From Xanthomonas sp. F10 (GTDB taxonomy: Bacteria; Pseudomonadota; Gammaproteobacteria; Xanthomonadales; Xanthomonadaceae), in contig NZ_JACHNP010000001.1 of assembly GCF_014206815.1 (NCBI RefSeq), positions 834,456 through 898,455 on the forward strand: 64,000 nucleotides of DNA, in the 5' to 3' direction. Below the pieces are notes generated by a model, which worked only from the letters and a program-made list of their open reading frames with translations, was not told the origin of the DNA and ran no database searches. Numbering within the stretch: the stretch's first letter is position 1; each line of letters starts with the position of its first letter. Shown piece after piece: positions 45,700 through 50,145 of the stretch. A program made the translations under genes and the position numbers.

Positions 45700-46051
45700 T
45701 GGTGGAGGTGGGCGGAATCGAACCGCCGTCCGAAGGCACTCCATCCCCGGCACTACATGCTTAGCTCATCGTTGGATCTCATCCCGGAACAGCACGATGT
45801 GCGAAGCGCATCCCGGGACCAGCCTGCTTGATTTAGCCAATGGCTGACAGGCAGCCACCACCGGCGATTCCGTGATAATGACCCTACGTCGCGAGCACGG
45901 ACACAAGCGATTTCGGGGCTAGGCCTTAAGCGGCCAGTGCGTAGTTGTCGTCGTTGGCAACTATAAGTTTGCGGCTGGATTTACGAGGAAAGCTGCCCCC
46001 TCGGCATGCGCCAAGCGATTTTGCAACCCCCGTCGAAACCAGTGCACCCCC
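45700..46051 (-). ncRNA. ssrA: Transfer-messenger RNA (tmRNA)
   Basis: The minus strand starts GGGGGTGCACTGG and ends with a tRNA-like T-arm, GGCGGTTCGATTCCGCC, then CACCTCC and ACCA. GGGGGTG pairs with CACCTCC to form the 7-bp acceptor stem. The tag frame ends at TAA 45926-45928 and reads ANDDNYALAA. This RNA rescues stalled ribosomes together with SmpB (49642-50145). The 352-nt length is normal for the group. Confidence 0.97.
45926..45958 (-). other. tmRNA tag-peptide reading frame
   Basis: Ten codons give ANDDNYALAA followed by TAA. The final residues ALAA are the ClpXP/ClpAP degron. The first codon GCC is the resume codon. Confidence 0.95.
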
Positions 46052-46193: not shown

Positions 46194-48851
46194 ATGGCAA
46201 GCAGACAGCCGCGTGGCCGCAGCAGCGGGTCCGCGCCGAAGGCACCCGTCACGTCCTCTGGGTCCACGCCGGGCAAGCCGCCGGCGACATCCGCCGCCAA
46301 GCCGAGAGCGGCAGCGCGCAAGACGACAGCCGGTGGCGCGCGTGCTGCCAAGGCGCCCAAGGCGGCGACACCGGCACCGACAGCGACGGAGGCACCCGCA
46401 TCGGCACGGGCCGCTGCACCGTCCCGACCCAACGTCGCGGCTCCCAGCGTCAGCAGACCAGCCTCGGCGATGCCCGCCGCCACGCCACCGGCCGGCACCG
46501 CGTTGCGGCGCAAGGCCACCGGCGAAGGCTCGCTGGCGCAGGGGCGGGCACGCACGGTCGTCTACATCCACGGCATTGGCAACAAGCCGCCGGCCGAGGT
46601 GCTGCGTTGCCAGTGGGACCGTGCCTTGTTCGGCCGCGCCATGGGCGAGCGCACGCGCATGGCCTACTGGGTCAATCGCGAACGCTATCCGTCGCCGGAA
46701 CCGGGCGATTGCCAGGATCAGGATCGCGGCCCGGTGTTGAACCAGGCCGAGCAGCGCGTGCTGAGTGCACTGGGCGTGGCCCCGCAACTGGCCGATCTGC
46801 GCCAGCTCGCCGATACCTTGGCCGGCAGCGAGGTCGAGCGCGCACGGCTGCAGCAGCTGCTGGATGAAGTGGAGGCGGCGGCGCCGGCGCCAGCGACGGC
46901 AACCGCCGACGTGCAGGCGCAAGGCGTGGTCGACGTGCTCAACCGCGCGTTGCTCAAGCTGATCTCCGCGGCGCTGCTGCAGGACGTGCACGACTTCTTC
47001 TTCGTGCCGGCGCGACGCACGCAGATGCGCGAGAGCCTGCTGCAGCGCATCCGCGCCGGCGGCGGCCCGTTCGTGGTGATCGCGCACAGCCAGGGCTCGC
47101 TGATCGCCTACGACGTGCTGCGGGAGCTGCAGCCGCAGGATTGCGAGGTCTCGCTGCTGCTCACGCTCGGCTCGCCGCTGGGCCTGCCGGTGGTGCGCAG
47201 CATGTTCAAGGAGTGGACCGGCACGCCGACGCTGCCGTTCCCGCCCTGCGTGGCGCGCTGGGTCAATGTCGCCGAGCGGCGCGACCCGGTGGCCCTGGAC
47301 GACGATCTCAGCGACGACATCGGCGATGCCGACGGGCGCTTCCAGAACATCGCCGGGTCGAAGATCAACCCGGATTGGCAGCACAACCCACATTCGGCCG
47401 CCGGCTACCTGTCCATCCCCGACGTGCGGGCCGAGGTGCGGCGCGCGGTGGGGGTGGGCTTCGACCAGCCGATCGCGCATCCGGTGCTGATCAAGGATCT
47501 GTCCGACCAGTTGGAGGCGCGCGCGCCGGACTATCGGCACGAGGTGCTGATCGAACTCGAACGATTGTCCGATGCCGGCGATGCGGCGCAGCGCAAGCAT
47601 GCGCTGATCGCGGCGCTGCGCGCGCTGACCCAGGCCTCCACCGGGCTGCAGGGCGAGGCGCTGGATGCGCAGATCGAACTGGAGGACACCCTGCAGCGCT
47701 ACGTGTCGGCGCGGCTGACCCGGTTCGAGATCGAAAGCCTGCGCGAGCGCTATCGCGACCTCAACCTCAAGCGTTTGTGGCGCGATGCGGGCAAGCGTGC
47801 GCTGATCTACCAGTCGCGCAGCACGATCCAGGTGGATGCGGCGCAGGTGGCCTATCGCGCGCTCGGCGCCGGCATCGGCTGGGCGGTGCTGGACAGCGGC
47901 ATCGCCGCGGCGCATCCGCATTTCCACGTCGCCGGGCAGCCGCCGACCGTGCTTGCCCAATGGGACTGCACCCAGCGCGGACGCCCACGCGCGCTGCGCC
48001 CGGGCGAGGCCGGTTTCGATGCGCTCGACGGCAACGGCCACGGCACCCACGTGGCCGGCATCATCGCCGGGCAATGCGAGGCGCCGCTGCCGGGCGTGCC
48101 GGCCACCGCGCCGCTGCAGTTCGCCGGCATGGCACCGTTGGCGCGGCTCTACGGATTGAAGGTGCTGGACGACGACGGCAACGGCCGCGACTCGTGGATC
48201 ATCAAGGGCGTGCAGCAGGTGGCCGAACTCAACGAGCGCGCCGGCGAACTGGTGGTGCACGGGGTCAACCTGAGCCTGGGCGGCTACTTCGACGCCGAGA
48301 GCTACGGCTGCGGCTTCACCCCGCTGTGCAACGAACTGCGCCGGCTGTGGCGGCAGGGCGTGGTGGTGGTGATCGCGGCCGGCAACGACGGCCTGGCCTG
48401 GCTGATGCAGGGCGATGGCGAGGCCTATCCGCTGAACCTGGACCTGAGCATCGGCGACCCGGCCAACCTGGAGGAATCGCTGGCGGTGGGCTCGGTGCAC
48501 AAGAGCAGCCCGCACAGCTACGGCATTTCGTATTTCTCCTCGCGCGGCCCCACGGCCGATGGACGCTACAAGCCCGACCTGGTCGCGCCGGGCGAAAAGA
48601 TCCTGTCGGCCCACCACGGCTATGCGGTCGCGGATCCGGGCACCTGGATGGTGGAGATGAGCGGCACCAGCATGGCTGCGGCGCATGTGTCGGGGCTGAT
48701 TGCCGCCTTCCTGTCGGTGCGCCGCGAGTTCATCGGCGCCCCGGATCGGGTCAAGCAGCTGGTGCTGGCGCAGTGCCTGGACCTGCAGCGCGATCGCTAC
48801 ATGCAGGGCAGCGGATTGCCGAGCTTGATGCGGATGCTTGGTGGGACGTGA
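46194..48851 (+). CDS. Fusion of alpha/beta-hydrolase (lipase-like) and S8 subtilisin-like protease
   Basis: The 885-residue product has three parts. Residues 1-115 are Ala/Pro/Lys/Thr-rich with no signal peptide. Residues 120-440 resemble an alpha/beta hydrolase: VVYIHGIGN with the oxyanion His126, and the nucleophile elbow IAHSQGS with Ser299. Residues 545-870 are an S8 protease: Asp567 (VLDSGIA), His616 (GHGTHVAG), Asn731 (AAGNDG) and Ser826 (GTSMAAAH). All catalytic residues are present, so both halves should be active. GGAG lies 7 bases before ATG 46194. The gene is divergent from ssrA and lies between it and smpB. The function is not known. A cytoplasmic or non-Sec effector is possible. 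Confidence 0.85.
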   Translation: MASRQPRGRSSGSAPKAPVTSSGSTPGKPPATSAAKPRAAARKTTAGGARAAKAPKAATPAPTATEAPASARAAAPSRPNVAAPSVSRPASAMPAATPPAGTALRRKATGEGSLAQGRARTVVYIHGIGNKPPAEVLRCQWDRALFGRAMGERTRMAYWVNRERYPSPEPGDCQDQDRGPVLNQAEQRVLSALGVAPQLADLRQLADTLAGSEVERARLQQLLDEVEAAAPAPATATADVQAQGVVDVLNRALLKLISAALLQDVHDFFFVPARRTQMRESLLQRIRAGGGPFVVIAHSQGSLIAYDVLRELQPQDCEVSLLLTLGSPLGLPVVRSMFKEWTGTPTLPFPPCVARWVNVAERRDPVALDDDLSDDIGDADGRFQNIAGSKINPDWQHNPHSAAGYLSIPDVRAEVRRAVGVGFDQPIAHPVLIKDLSDQLEARAPDYRHEVLIELERLSDAGDAAQRKHALIAALRALTQASTGLQGEALDAQIELEDTLQRYVSARLTRFEIESLRERYRDLNLKRLWRDAGKRALIYQSRSTIQVDAAQVAYRALGAGIGWAVLDSGIAAAHPHFHVAGQPPTVLAQWDCTQRGRPRALRPGEAGFDALDGNGHGTHVAGIIAGQCEAPLPGVPATAPLQFAGMAPLARLYGLKVLDDDGNGRDSWIIKGVQQVAELNERAGELVVHGVNLSLGGYFDAESYGCGFTPLCNELRRLWRQGVVVVIAAGNDGLAWLMQGDGEAYPLNLDLSIGDPANLEESLAVGSVHKSSPHSYGISYFSSRGPTADGRYKPDLVAPGEKILSAHHGYAVADPGTWMVEMSGTSMAAAHVSGLIAAFLSVRREFIGAPDRVKQLVLAQCLDLQRDRYMQGSGLPSLMRMLGGT

Positions 48852-49641: not shown

Positions 49642-50145
49642 TCACGCATTCTTGTTGTGCCGGCGCATGATCCGTTGCTTGTCGCGGGCCCAGTCGCGGT
49701 CCTTGGCCGCGTTGCGCTTGTCGTGGTCCTGCTTGCCCTTGGCCAGCGCGATCTCGAGCTTGATCTTGTTCTTGCTCCAGTACATCGCGGTGGGCACGAG
49801 GGTGTAGCCGTCGCGCTCGACGCGGCCGATCAGCTTGTCGATCTCGTTCCGGTGCAGCAGCAGCTTGCGCGTGCGCCGGTCGTCGGCGACCACATGGGTG
49901 GAGGCCTGGATCAACGGGGTGATCTGCGCGCCGAACAGGAACAGCTCGCCCTGGCGCACGAAGGCGTAGCTCTCACCGATGTTGGCGCGGCCGGCGCGGA
50001 TCGACTTCACCTCCCAGCCCTGCAGGGCCAGGCCGGCCTCGTAGCGGTCCTCCAGGTGGTATTCGTGGCGCGCGCGCTTGTTCAGGGCGATGGTCTTGTT
50101 GGCCGTCGCGCCGTTTGCTTTATCCTTGACGGGTTTCTTGCTCAT
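49642..50145 (-). CDS. smpB: SsrA-binding protein SmpB
   Basis: The 167-residue protein binds tmRNA and places it in stalled ribosomes. The oligonucleotide-binding fold starts at [20 protein letters not shown] with [14 protein letters not shown] and ends with [21 protein letters not shown] and [10 protein letters not shown], the basic tail that enters the mRNA channel. ATG 50145 lies 58 bases from ratA's ATG; the two are divergent. ssrA lies 3.6 kb downstream on the same strand. Confidence 0.96.

What the first reader, a model, noticed from the sequence alone, without database searches (positions are those of the whole stretch)
46194..48851. Intact alpha/beta-hydrolase fused to an intact subtilisin-like protease
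Seen: one 885-codon gene with a lipase-like nucleophile elbow (Ser299), an oxyanion HGIG, and a complete S8 triad (Asp567, His616, Ser826, with Asn731). It has no signal peptide and a 115-residue low-complexity N-terminus. Known: both folds occur widely but their covalent fusion in one chain is not a textbook architecture. Inference: one half may activate, process or target the other, and the protein may be a self-processing effector or defence protein.
Basis: partly seen in the sequence, partly recalled or inferred. Interest (0 to 1): 0.75.

Follow-up and report, generated by a model that had tools for sequence, protein, structure and literature searches.

The report
Lipase-like enzyme fused to subtilisin
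A bacterial gene joins a lipase-like enzyme and a protein-cutting enzyme in one chain; its relatives suggest it is the one-piece form of a recurring protease-plus-hydrolase pair, possibly a built-in switch for defence or cell suicide, but this has not been tested here.

Summary
Window 46194-48851 encodes one 885-residue chain: a basic, low-complexity tail, an alpha/beta-hydrolase (Ser299, Asp364, His400), a conserved 110-residue middle and a complete S8 subtilase (Asp567, His616, Asn731, Ser826). It is not a one-off. Of 52 related loci, 46 keep an open fused chain (Xanthomonas, Pseudoxanthomonas, Malikia, Nitrosomonas, one cyanobacterium); both triads are invariant in the 29 rows aligned, and both halves are under purifying selection. 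The best clue is partner swapping. Of 23 plasmid records with close relatives of the S8 half, 17 carry a separate alpha/beta-hydrolase gene directly downstream and 5 a metallo-beta-lactamase gene (LmuA/Avs1a-like in the 4 scanned). In a tree the fused S8s are sister to the hydrolase-paired ones. Of 16 stand-alone hydrolase relatives examined, 5 sit beside a caspase-like gene. I read the gene as the single-chain form of a protease-hydrolase module, most likely a protease-controlled lipase/esterase effector. The partnership is well supported; direction of control, substrate, trigger and any defence role are inferred. PADLOC already holds a bare model, 'subtilase', that the chain matches strongly. 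In Xanthomonadaceae the gene lies at a fixed place between ssrA and smpB, which speaks against a mobile defence island.

The parts
46194..46547 (+). N-terminal basic low-complexity tail (residues 1-118; 19 K/R, 2 D/E), fast evolving
   Evidence: composition; dN/dS 0.14-0.96 in 12 pairs; at least 48 residues long in 44 of 46 open chains, 9 in L020 (start codon uncertain) and 7 in the cyanobacterial L057
46548..47483 (+). alpha/beta-hydrolase half (residues 119-430)
   Evidence: dN/dS 0.05-0.24
46569..46580 (+). HGIG, presumed oxyanion-loop motif (residues 126-129)
   Evidence: HGI invariant in 29 of 29 rows, Gly129 in 24; function recalled from the fold
47088..47090 (+). Ser299, presumed hydrolase nucleophile (AHSQG)
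   Evidence: invariant 29 of 29
47283..47285 (+). Asp364, presumed hydrolase triad acid
   Evidence: invariant 29 of 29
47391..47393 (+). His400, presumed hydrolase triad histidine
   Evidence: invariant 29 of 29; the nearby His397 is not conserved
47484..47813 (+). conserved middle region (residues 431-540), at the place where subtilases often carry a propeptide (recalled)
   Evidence: alignable with the N-terminal part of two-gene S8 relatives; Inhibitor_I9 matched in 0 of 20 members
47814..48851 (+). S8 subtilase half (residues 541-885) and stop codon
   Evidence: Pfam PF00082 E 3e-43; PADLOC subtilase E 4e-69
47892..47894 (+). Asp567 of the S8 triad
   Evidence: invariant 29 of 29
48039..48041 (+). 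His616 of the S8 triad
   Evidence: invariant 29 of 29
48384..48386 (+). Asn731, S8 oxyanion-hole residue (role recalled)
   Evidence: invariant 29 of 29
48669..48671 (+). Ser826 of the S8 triad (GTSMA)
   Evidence: invariant 29 of 29
45700..46051 (-). tmRNA gene ssrA, divergent neighbour (142 bp before the start codon); context, not part of the protein
   Evidence: beside the gene in 42 of 43 Xanthomonadaceae loci
49642..50145 (-). smpB (named by eye from its sequence), next recognised gene downstream; context
   Evidence: found in 41 of 41 Xanthomonadaceae loci with room

Best explanation
The gene encodes a cytosolic two-enzyme module in one chain: a lipase/esterase/thioesterase-like alpha/beta-hydrolase followed by a subtilase. 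It is the fused form of a recurring protease-hydrolase pair whose members also occur as adjacent genes, with either side exchangeable (subtilase or caspase as protease; alpha/beta-hydrolase or metallo-beta-lactamase-type protein as partner). Most likely the protease is the switch and the hydrolase the effector: on an unknown signal the subtilase cuts the chain (middle region, or an insertion of the hydrolase half), freeing or activating the hydrolase, which attacks acyl esters or thioesters, probably membrane lipids, and stops or kills the cell. Shown here: the intact fusion, invariance of both active sites, purifying selection, and partner swapping. Inferred: protease-to-hydrolase direction, cleavage, substrate, trigger, and a role in defence or stress suicide. 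My odds: functional partnership about 0.85, protease controls hydrolase about 0.5, antiphage role about 0.35.
For: Both triads invariant in 29 of 29 rows. Fused open chain in 46 of 52 loci, across Xanthomonadaceae, Comamonadaceae, Nitrosomonadaceae and a cyanobacterium. Plasmid relatives of the S8 half (E <= 1e-35): next gene is an alpha/beta-hydrolase in 17 of 23, an MBL gene in 5, neither in 1. In a draw of 398 genomes of the phylum, 4 have the S8 type at E <= 1e-60: own (fused), 2 with MBL directly downstream, 1 with neither. Tree of 36 rows: fused S8s one clade (100/100), sister to hydrolase-paired S8s (95/86), MBL-paired next, other subtilases outside. Control: 0 of 9 other subtilase loci have a partner of these kinds. 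Relatives of the hydrolase half follow a caspase-like gene in 5 of 16 loci; 3 of the 4 such caspases scanned match PADLOC's 'caspase'. One S8-MBL pair follows, as next genes, a Pycsar cyclase-E2-TIR set. Published precedent: proteases activate paired MBL pro-nucleases by cleavage (PMC12799240); in VMAP ternary systems a caspase domain always comes with a neighbouring alpha/beta-hydrolase gene (PMC7159879, passage).
Against: No structure prediction could be run. The middle region has no I9 propeptide match (0 of 20), so autoprocessing there is a guess from position. The separate hydrolases of the rhizobial pairs share little more than the nucleophile region with the fused one (hhalign probability 20%, E 0.001, 101 columns), and neither they nor the caspase-linked hydrolases match any PADLOC model. 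In Xanthomonadaceae the gene sits at a fixed locus (42 of 43 beside ssrA), and 13 of the 15 Rhizobium/Sinorhizobium hydrolase pairs are followed by thiamine genes, not defence genes. 13 of the 17 hydrolase-paired plasmid records are close Rhizobium copies, so independent events are few. In 11 of 16 hydrolase loci no homologue of the caspase gene was found; two S8 relatives (L075, L126) have no partner of these kinds. No substrate or phenotype is known.
Confidence: 0.45

Rival explanations
1. A resident stress or quality-control enzyme tied to trans-translation: it shares its intergenic region with ssrA, lies next to smpB, and may clear tagged or stalled products or respond to ribosome-rescue stress.
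For: ssrA divergent and adjacent in 42 of 43 Xanthomonadaceae loci; smpB downstream in 41 of 41 with room; low dN/dS suggests steady use.
Against: A tmRNA gene is near the fused gene in 0 of 8 loci examined outside the family and not near the more distant Lysobacteraceae copy in L088; a lipase-like half has no known role in tag-directed proteolysis (recalled); 6 of 52 copies are broken (some may be assembly errors), so it seems dispensable.
Confidence: 0.15
2. Two independent degradative activities on one chain that act in parallel on a third target, for example as an exported enzyme, without controlling one another.
For: Both active sites intact; the basic tail could be a sorting or binding element.
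Against: No signal peptide; no secretion or immunity gene recognised by eye in the ORFs at 40-56 kb; the tail is fast evolving and missing in the cyanobacterial copy; partner swapping with MBL proteins and caspases fits control better than joint degradation.
Confidence: 0.15
3. The reverse direction: the hydrolase half, or a lipid or acyl ligand bound to it, senses a signal and switches on the subtilase, which is the real effector.
For: The hydrolase half stands N-terminal, on the side where subtilases carry inhibitory propeptides (recalled); the S8 half has the lower dN/dS in 11 of 12 pairs.
Against: In relatives the partner is also an MBL protein of the gated-nuclease kind, for which activation by proteases is published (PMC12799240); the hydrolase keeps a complete triad, so it is not a mere binding domain.
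Confidence: 0.15
4. Shadow frame or chance fusion without function.
For: G+C-rich window with a long antisense frame (848 aa).
Against: Homologue at 46% identity over residues 121-885 in a cyanobacterium; dN/dS 0.02-0.24 for the two halves.
Confidence: 0.01

Closest known systems
PADLOC-DB model PDLC03014 'subtilase'
   Same: Matches this chain with 231.9 bits from residue 141 to 878 and the cyanobacterial homologue from the equivalent residue 28, so the model seems to have been built from fused chains of this family (inference).
   Different: The name is bare; I could not find which system or paper it stems from. By eye no further defence gene was recognised among the ORFs at 40-56 kb; these were not scanned with PADLOC.
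Protease-activated MBL pro-nuclease pairs (Hachiman, AVAST, Lamassu, DRT, canu; Tuck et al. 2025, PMC12799240)
   Same: A protease gene paired with a hydrolase effector; relatives of our S8 half sit next to MBL proteins of that type (LmuA/Avs1a models match the four scanned).
   Different: The proteases described in what I read are trypsin-like or caspase; the main text does not mention subtilisin (0 hits), though it mentions proteases of 'other diverse families' in a supplementary figure not seen. The window partner is an alpha/beta-hydrolase in cis, not a nuclease.
Caspase plus alpha/beta-hydrolase pairs of VMAP ternary conflict systems (Kaur et al. 2020, PMC7159879)
   Same: Protease and alpha/beta-hydrolase proposed to operate together; stand-alone relatives of our hydrolase half lie next to caspase-like genes.
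   Different: Protease is a caspase and separate; MoxR/vWA genes were not looked for around the window gene beyond reading its ORFs.
IetS, subtilase of the IetAS antiphage system
   Same: S8 protease domain; weak profile similarity (33 bits).
   Different: Far below the NCBIfam cut-off (26.7 against 900 bits); IetS profiles match only within the S8 half.

Membership tests
Peptidase family S8 (subtilase) | Pfam PF00082 above gathering score | tested here: met
   148.6 bits against 21.8
Peptidase family S8 (subtilase) | Asp/His/Ser triad and oxyanion Asn | tested here: met
   D567, H616, S826, N731 invariant in 29 of 29
Alpha/beta-hydrolase superfamily | Ser/Asp/His triad in order, nucleophile elbow | tested here: met
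   S299 (AHSQG), D364, H400 invariant in 29 of 29
Alpha/beta-hydrolase superfamily | curated profile above cut-off | tested here: inconclusive
   window protein below cut-off (20.6 against 26.3 bits); Abhydrolase_6 matched in 20 of 20 and Thioesterase in 17 of 20 members at E <= 0.01, the cyanobacterial one above the Thioesterase cut-off (37.8 against 26.4)
Alpha/beta-hydrolase superfamily | eight-stranded fold in a structure | not testable with these tools
   structure prediction switched off
PADLOC 'subtilase' (PDLC03014) | profile match over the whole model | tested here: met
   positions 2-391 of 391, E 4e-69
IetAS | NCBIfam IetS equivalog cut-off | tested here: not met
   26.7 bits against 900
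Protease plus MBL pro-nuclease pair (Tuck et al.) | adjacent MBL nuclease gene | tested here: not met
   none recognised by eye among the ORFs around the window gene; an adjacent MBL gene is present in 5 of 23 plasmid relatives of the S8 half
Caspase plus alpha/beta-hydrolase pair (Kaur et al.) | adjacent caspase gene | tested here: not met
   none recognised by eye near the window gene; present in 5 of 16 loci of stand-alone hydrolase relatives
Type VII secretion mycosin | TIGR03921 cut-off | tested here: not met
   90.1 bits against 278.75

The most novel reading that the evidence does not exclude
A single-chain suicide switch: a lipase-like proenzyme that carries its own activating subtilase, the subtilase counterpart of caspase- and trypsin-gated immune effectors, kept in Xanthomonadaceae between the two trans-translation genes so that translation failure or phage attack could trigger it.
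Probability: 0.2. Interest if true: 0.8.

Novelty: new variant of a known kind. Interest (0 to 1): 0.55.

Why it matters
Bacterial immune systems repeatedly pair a protease with a dormant effector. If a subtilase does the same for a lipase-like enzyme, and in one chain, the family offers the simplest form of that principle: one gene, two active sites, each removable by one substitution. It would also give a function to a PADLOC model and to hypothetical genes beside S8 peptidases in rhizobia, actinobacteria and elsewhere.

Tried and rejected
Structure prediction of the full chain with an alignment: tool switched off, so domain docking and a lid or gate in the hydrolase could not be examined. 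Propeptide reading of residues 431-540: position suggests it, and the S8 profile match starts at residue 13 of 9ues_B and 125 of 3afg (that the longer N-terminus of 3afg is a propeptide is recalled), but Pfam gave no I9 match in 20 members at E <= 10; kept as a guess only. Homology of the fused and the separate rhizobial hydrolases beyond the fold: not supported. Phage-borne or plasmid-borne fused copies: no record with one place covering 80% of the chain in either collection; the two viral-contig hits (L006, L007) look like prophages integrated at ssrA whose records run on into the host gene. Conserved neighbours outside Xanthomonadaceae: only local gene order of close species was shared. Which system PADLOC's 'subtilase' belongs to: the neighbouring model number is RTasTM, a hint of reverse-transcriptase systems, but no paper was found. 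Promoters and terminators: no promoter-like site, terminator-like sites at chance level. Literature: ten full-text searches showed no paper on this fusion in their listings; three of them listed only part of their hits (20 of 98, 10 of 13, 10 of 67), the single hit (PMC4652430) was not opened, subscription papers are mostly not held and one sought paper was not held. Passages were also seen of PMC8195603, PMC10910872 and PMC10586767; none describes this architecture.
Full report
OBSERVATION. The ORF at 46194-48851 encodes 885 residues. Pfam gives Peptidase_S8 at 564-872 (E 3e-43). The first half is an alpha/beta-hydrolase: alone it scores Abhydrolase_6 E 8e-4, and all 20 members of alignment A4 match that model while 17 match Thioesterase, best 1.6e-9. 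A profile search of solved structures gives a polyketide synthase chain (E 7e-4), fengycin synthetase (E 0.005) and Group XV phospholipase A2 (E 0.026) as nearest. Ser299, Asp364, His400, Asp567, His616, Asn731 and Ser826 are invariant in the 29 chains aligned, 28 of the 46 open relatives plus the window's. There is no signal peptide, and the 118-residue tail is strongly basic.

A FAMILY, NOT AN ACCIDENT. A pattern scan of the collection of 84,980 species' genomes with the hydrolase half alone (alignment A2) returned 50 loci, and two more came from viral contigs. All 52 also encode the S8 half after the hydrolase half (in L019 about 6 kb further on). In 46 of 52 the chain is open; one of these (L056) runs off its contig. 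Six are broken: L019 by what looks like an insertion, L044, L045, L046, L047 and L055 with alignments in pieces. Sources are Xanthomonas, Pseudoxanthomonas, Malikia, Nitrosomonas (with a Burkholderiales MAG) and the cyanobacterium Kastovskya, whose chain has almost no tail, so the tail is not part of the core. In 12 close pairs dN/dS is 0.05-0.24 for the hydrolase half, 0.02-0.20 for the S8 half, 0.03-0.26 for the middle and 0.14-0.96 for the tail (a few dS values are near saturation). In a draw of 60 genomes of the window's family, 8 hold a match to the hydrolase half, among them the window's own genome, one of the same species and one of the same genus; seven have open frames of 823-968 aa as the fusion needs, of which I checked the S8 half in two (G000, G008), and one (G048) is a separate hydrolase. 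So the gene is frequent in Xanthomonas and near kin but patchy in the family.

GENOMIC PLACE. In 42 of 43 Xanthomonadaceae loci tmRNA lies just upstream on the other strand (not detected in L046), and smpB follows in 41 of 41 loci with room. Outside the family no tmRNA is near in the 8 loci examined, nor in L088. The place looks ancestral to the group; it does not by itself tell the function.

PARTNER SWAPPING. tblastn of the S8 half against 72,556 plasmid records gave 23 at E <= 1e-35. I fetched all 23. The next gene downstream is a roughly 440-residue alpha/beta-hydrolase in 17 (gap 9-13 bp; interrupted in L085), an MBL-fold protein in 5 (L005, L068, L070, L071, L076) and neither in L075. 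Thirteen of the 17 are close Rhizobium copies, so the independent cases are fewer: two Rhizobium types, Sinorhizobium medicae and two Rhodococcus. Seven of the 17 separate hydrolases were aligned and keep Ser, Asp and His. Four of the five MBL proteins were scanned and match PADLOC's LmuA, Avs1a and DRT-associated MBL models; the separate hydrolases scanned match no PADLOC model. Other genes nearby include patatin-like phospholipases (L005, L071), a Tle1-like phospholipase (L068), FRG and SIR2 genes (L076) and, in Methylorubrum, a Pycsar cyclase, E2 and TIR set upstream. By contrast 13 of the 15 Rhizobium/Sinorhizobium hydrolase pairs are followed by thiamine genes. In a draw of 398 genomes of the phylum the S8 type is rare: 4 of 398 at E <= 1e-60, namely the window's, two with an MBL gene directly downstream and one with neither (lower bounds, since the tool scored at most 4 candidates per genome). 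As control, none of 9 other subtilase loci (7 of the same genome with about 1.5 kb flanks, 2 plasmid ones) has a partner of these kinds.

A tree of 36 S8 domains puts the fused ones in one clade (100/100), sister to the hydrolase-paired ones (95/86); the MBL-paired ones come next and the other subtilases lie outside (several long branches, and the clade's partnerless row L075 has no firm place). The hydrolase half has its own stand-alone relatives: in the draw of 398 genomes, 15 match the profile at E <= 1e-10, one of them the window's. Of 16 such loci examined (15 stretches of the other 14 genomes, and L087 of G048), 5 have a homologous caspase-like gene directly upstream, counting L087 whose gene was the query. 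Pfam's caspase model matches four of these at E <= 0.0013, two above its cut-off, and misses the fifth, a broken copy of which only the open stretch was scanned. In the other eleven no homologue of that gene was found; other proteases were not looked for.

HOW IT PROBABLY WORKS. Two enzymes found next to each other in some lineages and fused in others usually act together; here both sides of the pair are exchangeable. The best studied relative is the protease-MBL pair, where the protease cuts gating insertions of a pro-nuclease and so unleashes it (Tuck et al. 2025, PMC12799240; I saw the abstract, part of the introduction, part 1 of the results, section 8 and search passages). Kaur et al. 2020 (PMC7159879, passages only) report that caspase domains of VMAP ternary systems always come with a neighbouring alpha/beta-hydrolase gene. 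By analogy I take the subtilase as switch and the hydrolase as effector. The conserved middle region, also present in front of the S8 domain of the two-gene forms, is the natural place for a cut that would part the two halves; this is inference, and no known propeptide family matches it. Lipid as substrate is a guess from the nearest folds.

WHAT SPEAKS AGAINST. Structure could not be predicted. The defence reading rests mainly on the MBL branch; the alpha/beta-hydrolase pairs in rhizobia lie mostly in metabolic surroundings, and the Xanthomonas gene is a fixed resident. The fused and the separate hydrolases are not close relatives, so the pairing may have arisen more than once or changed partners.

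COMPARISON. The chain is a member of peptidase family S8 and, by triad and profiles, of the alpha/beta-hydrolases. It matches PADLOC's 'subtilase' model over its full length, and the model appears to include the hydrolase part because it starts at the same aligned residue in the window protein and the cyanobacterial one. It fails the IetS and mycosin cut-offs. It works like, but is not a member of, the published protease-nuclease pairs.

VERDICT. Real, conserved, not found described in the listings of the ten searches made, and more than a curiosity because its partners can be traced; but function remains inferred.

Noticed in passing
45700-46051 (-) and loci L008-L048: The tmRNA tag predicted here has 10 residues (ANDDNYALAA, gene 352 nt); most other Xanthomonas loci have 14 (ANDDNYGSDFAIAA or close, gene 397-398 nt). 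Both forms occur scattered in Xanthomonas and Pseudoxanthomonas.
   Followed up: no
L006:3963-5225, L007:4125-5375: What look like prophages lie next to tmRNA with an integrase-like gene (named by eye, not scanned) beside it; the viral records run on through tmRNA into the host fusion gene and end at its stop codon.
   Followed up: partly
L070:1-6082 (Methylorubrum extorquens CM4 plasmid): Pycsar-type cyclase, E2-like protein and TIR effector are followed, as next genes, by the S8 peptidase and an MBL gene, suggesting that a subtilase-MBL pair joined a signalling defence system.
   Followed up: partly
L068:3536-7674 (Miltoncostaea plasmid): S8 peptidase, MBL protein and a Tle1-like phospholipase in one tight run.
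   Followed up: no
L054:6219-7013, L053:10359-11153, L051:10372-11043 (-): In three Nitrosomonas loci a conserved gene of unknown kind lies downstream of the fused gene on the other strand.
   Followed up: no
L019, L044, L045, L046, L047, L055: Six of 52 fused loci carry broken copies; some may be assembly errors (four pieces in L046, where tmRNA was not detected either).
   Followed up: partly
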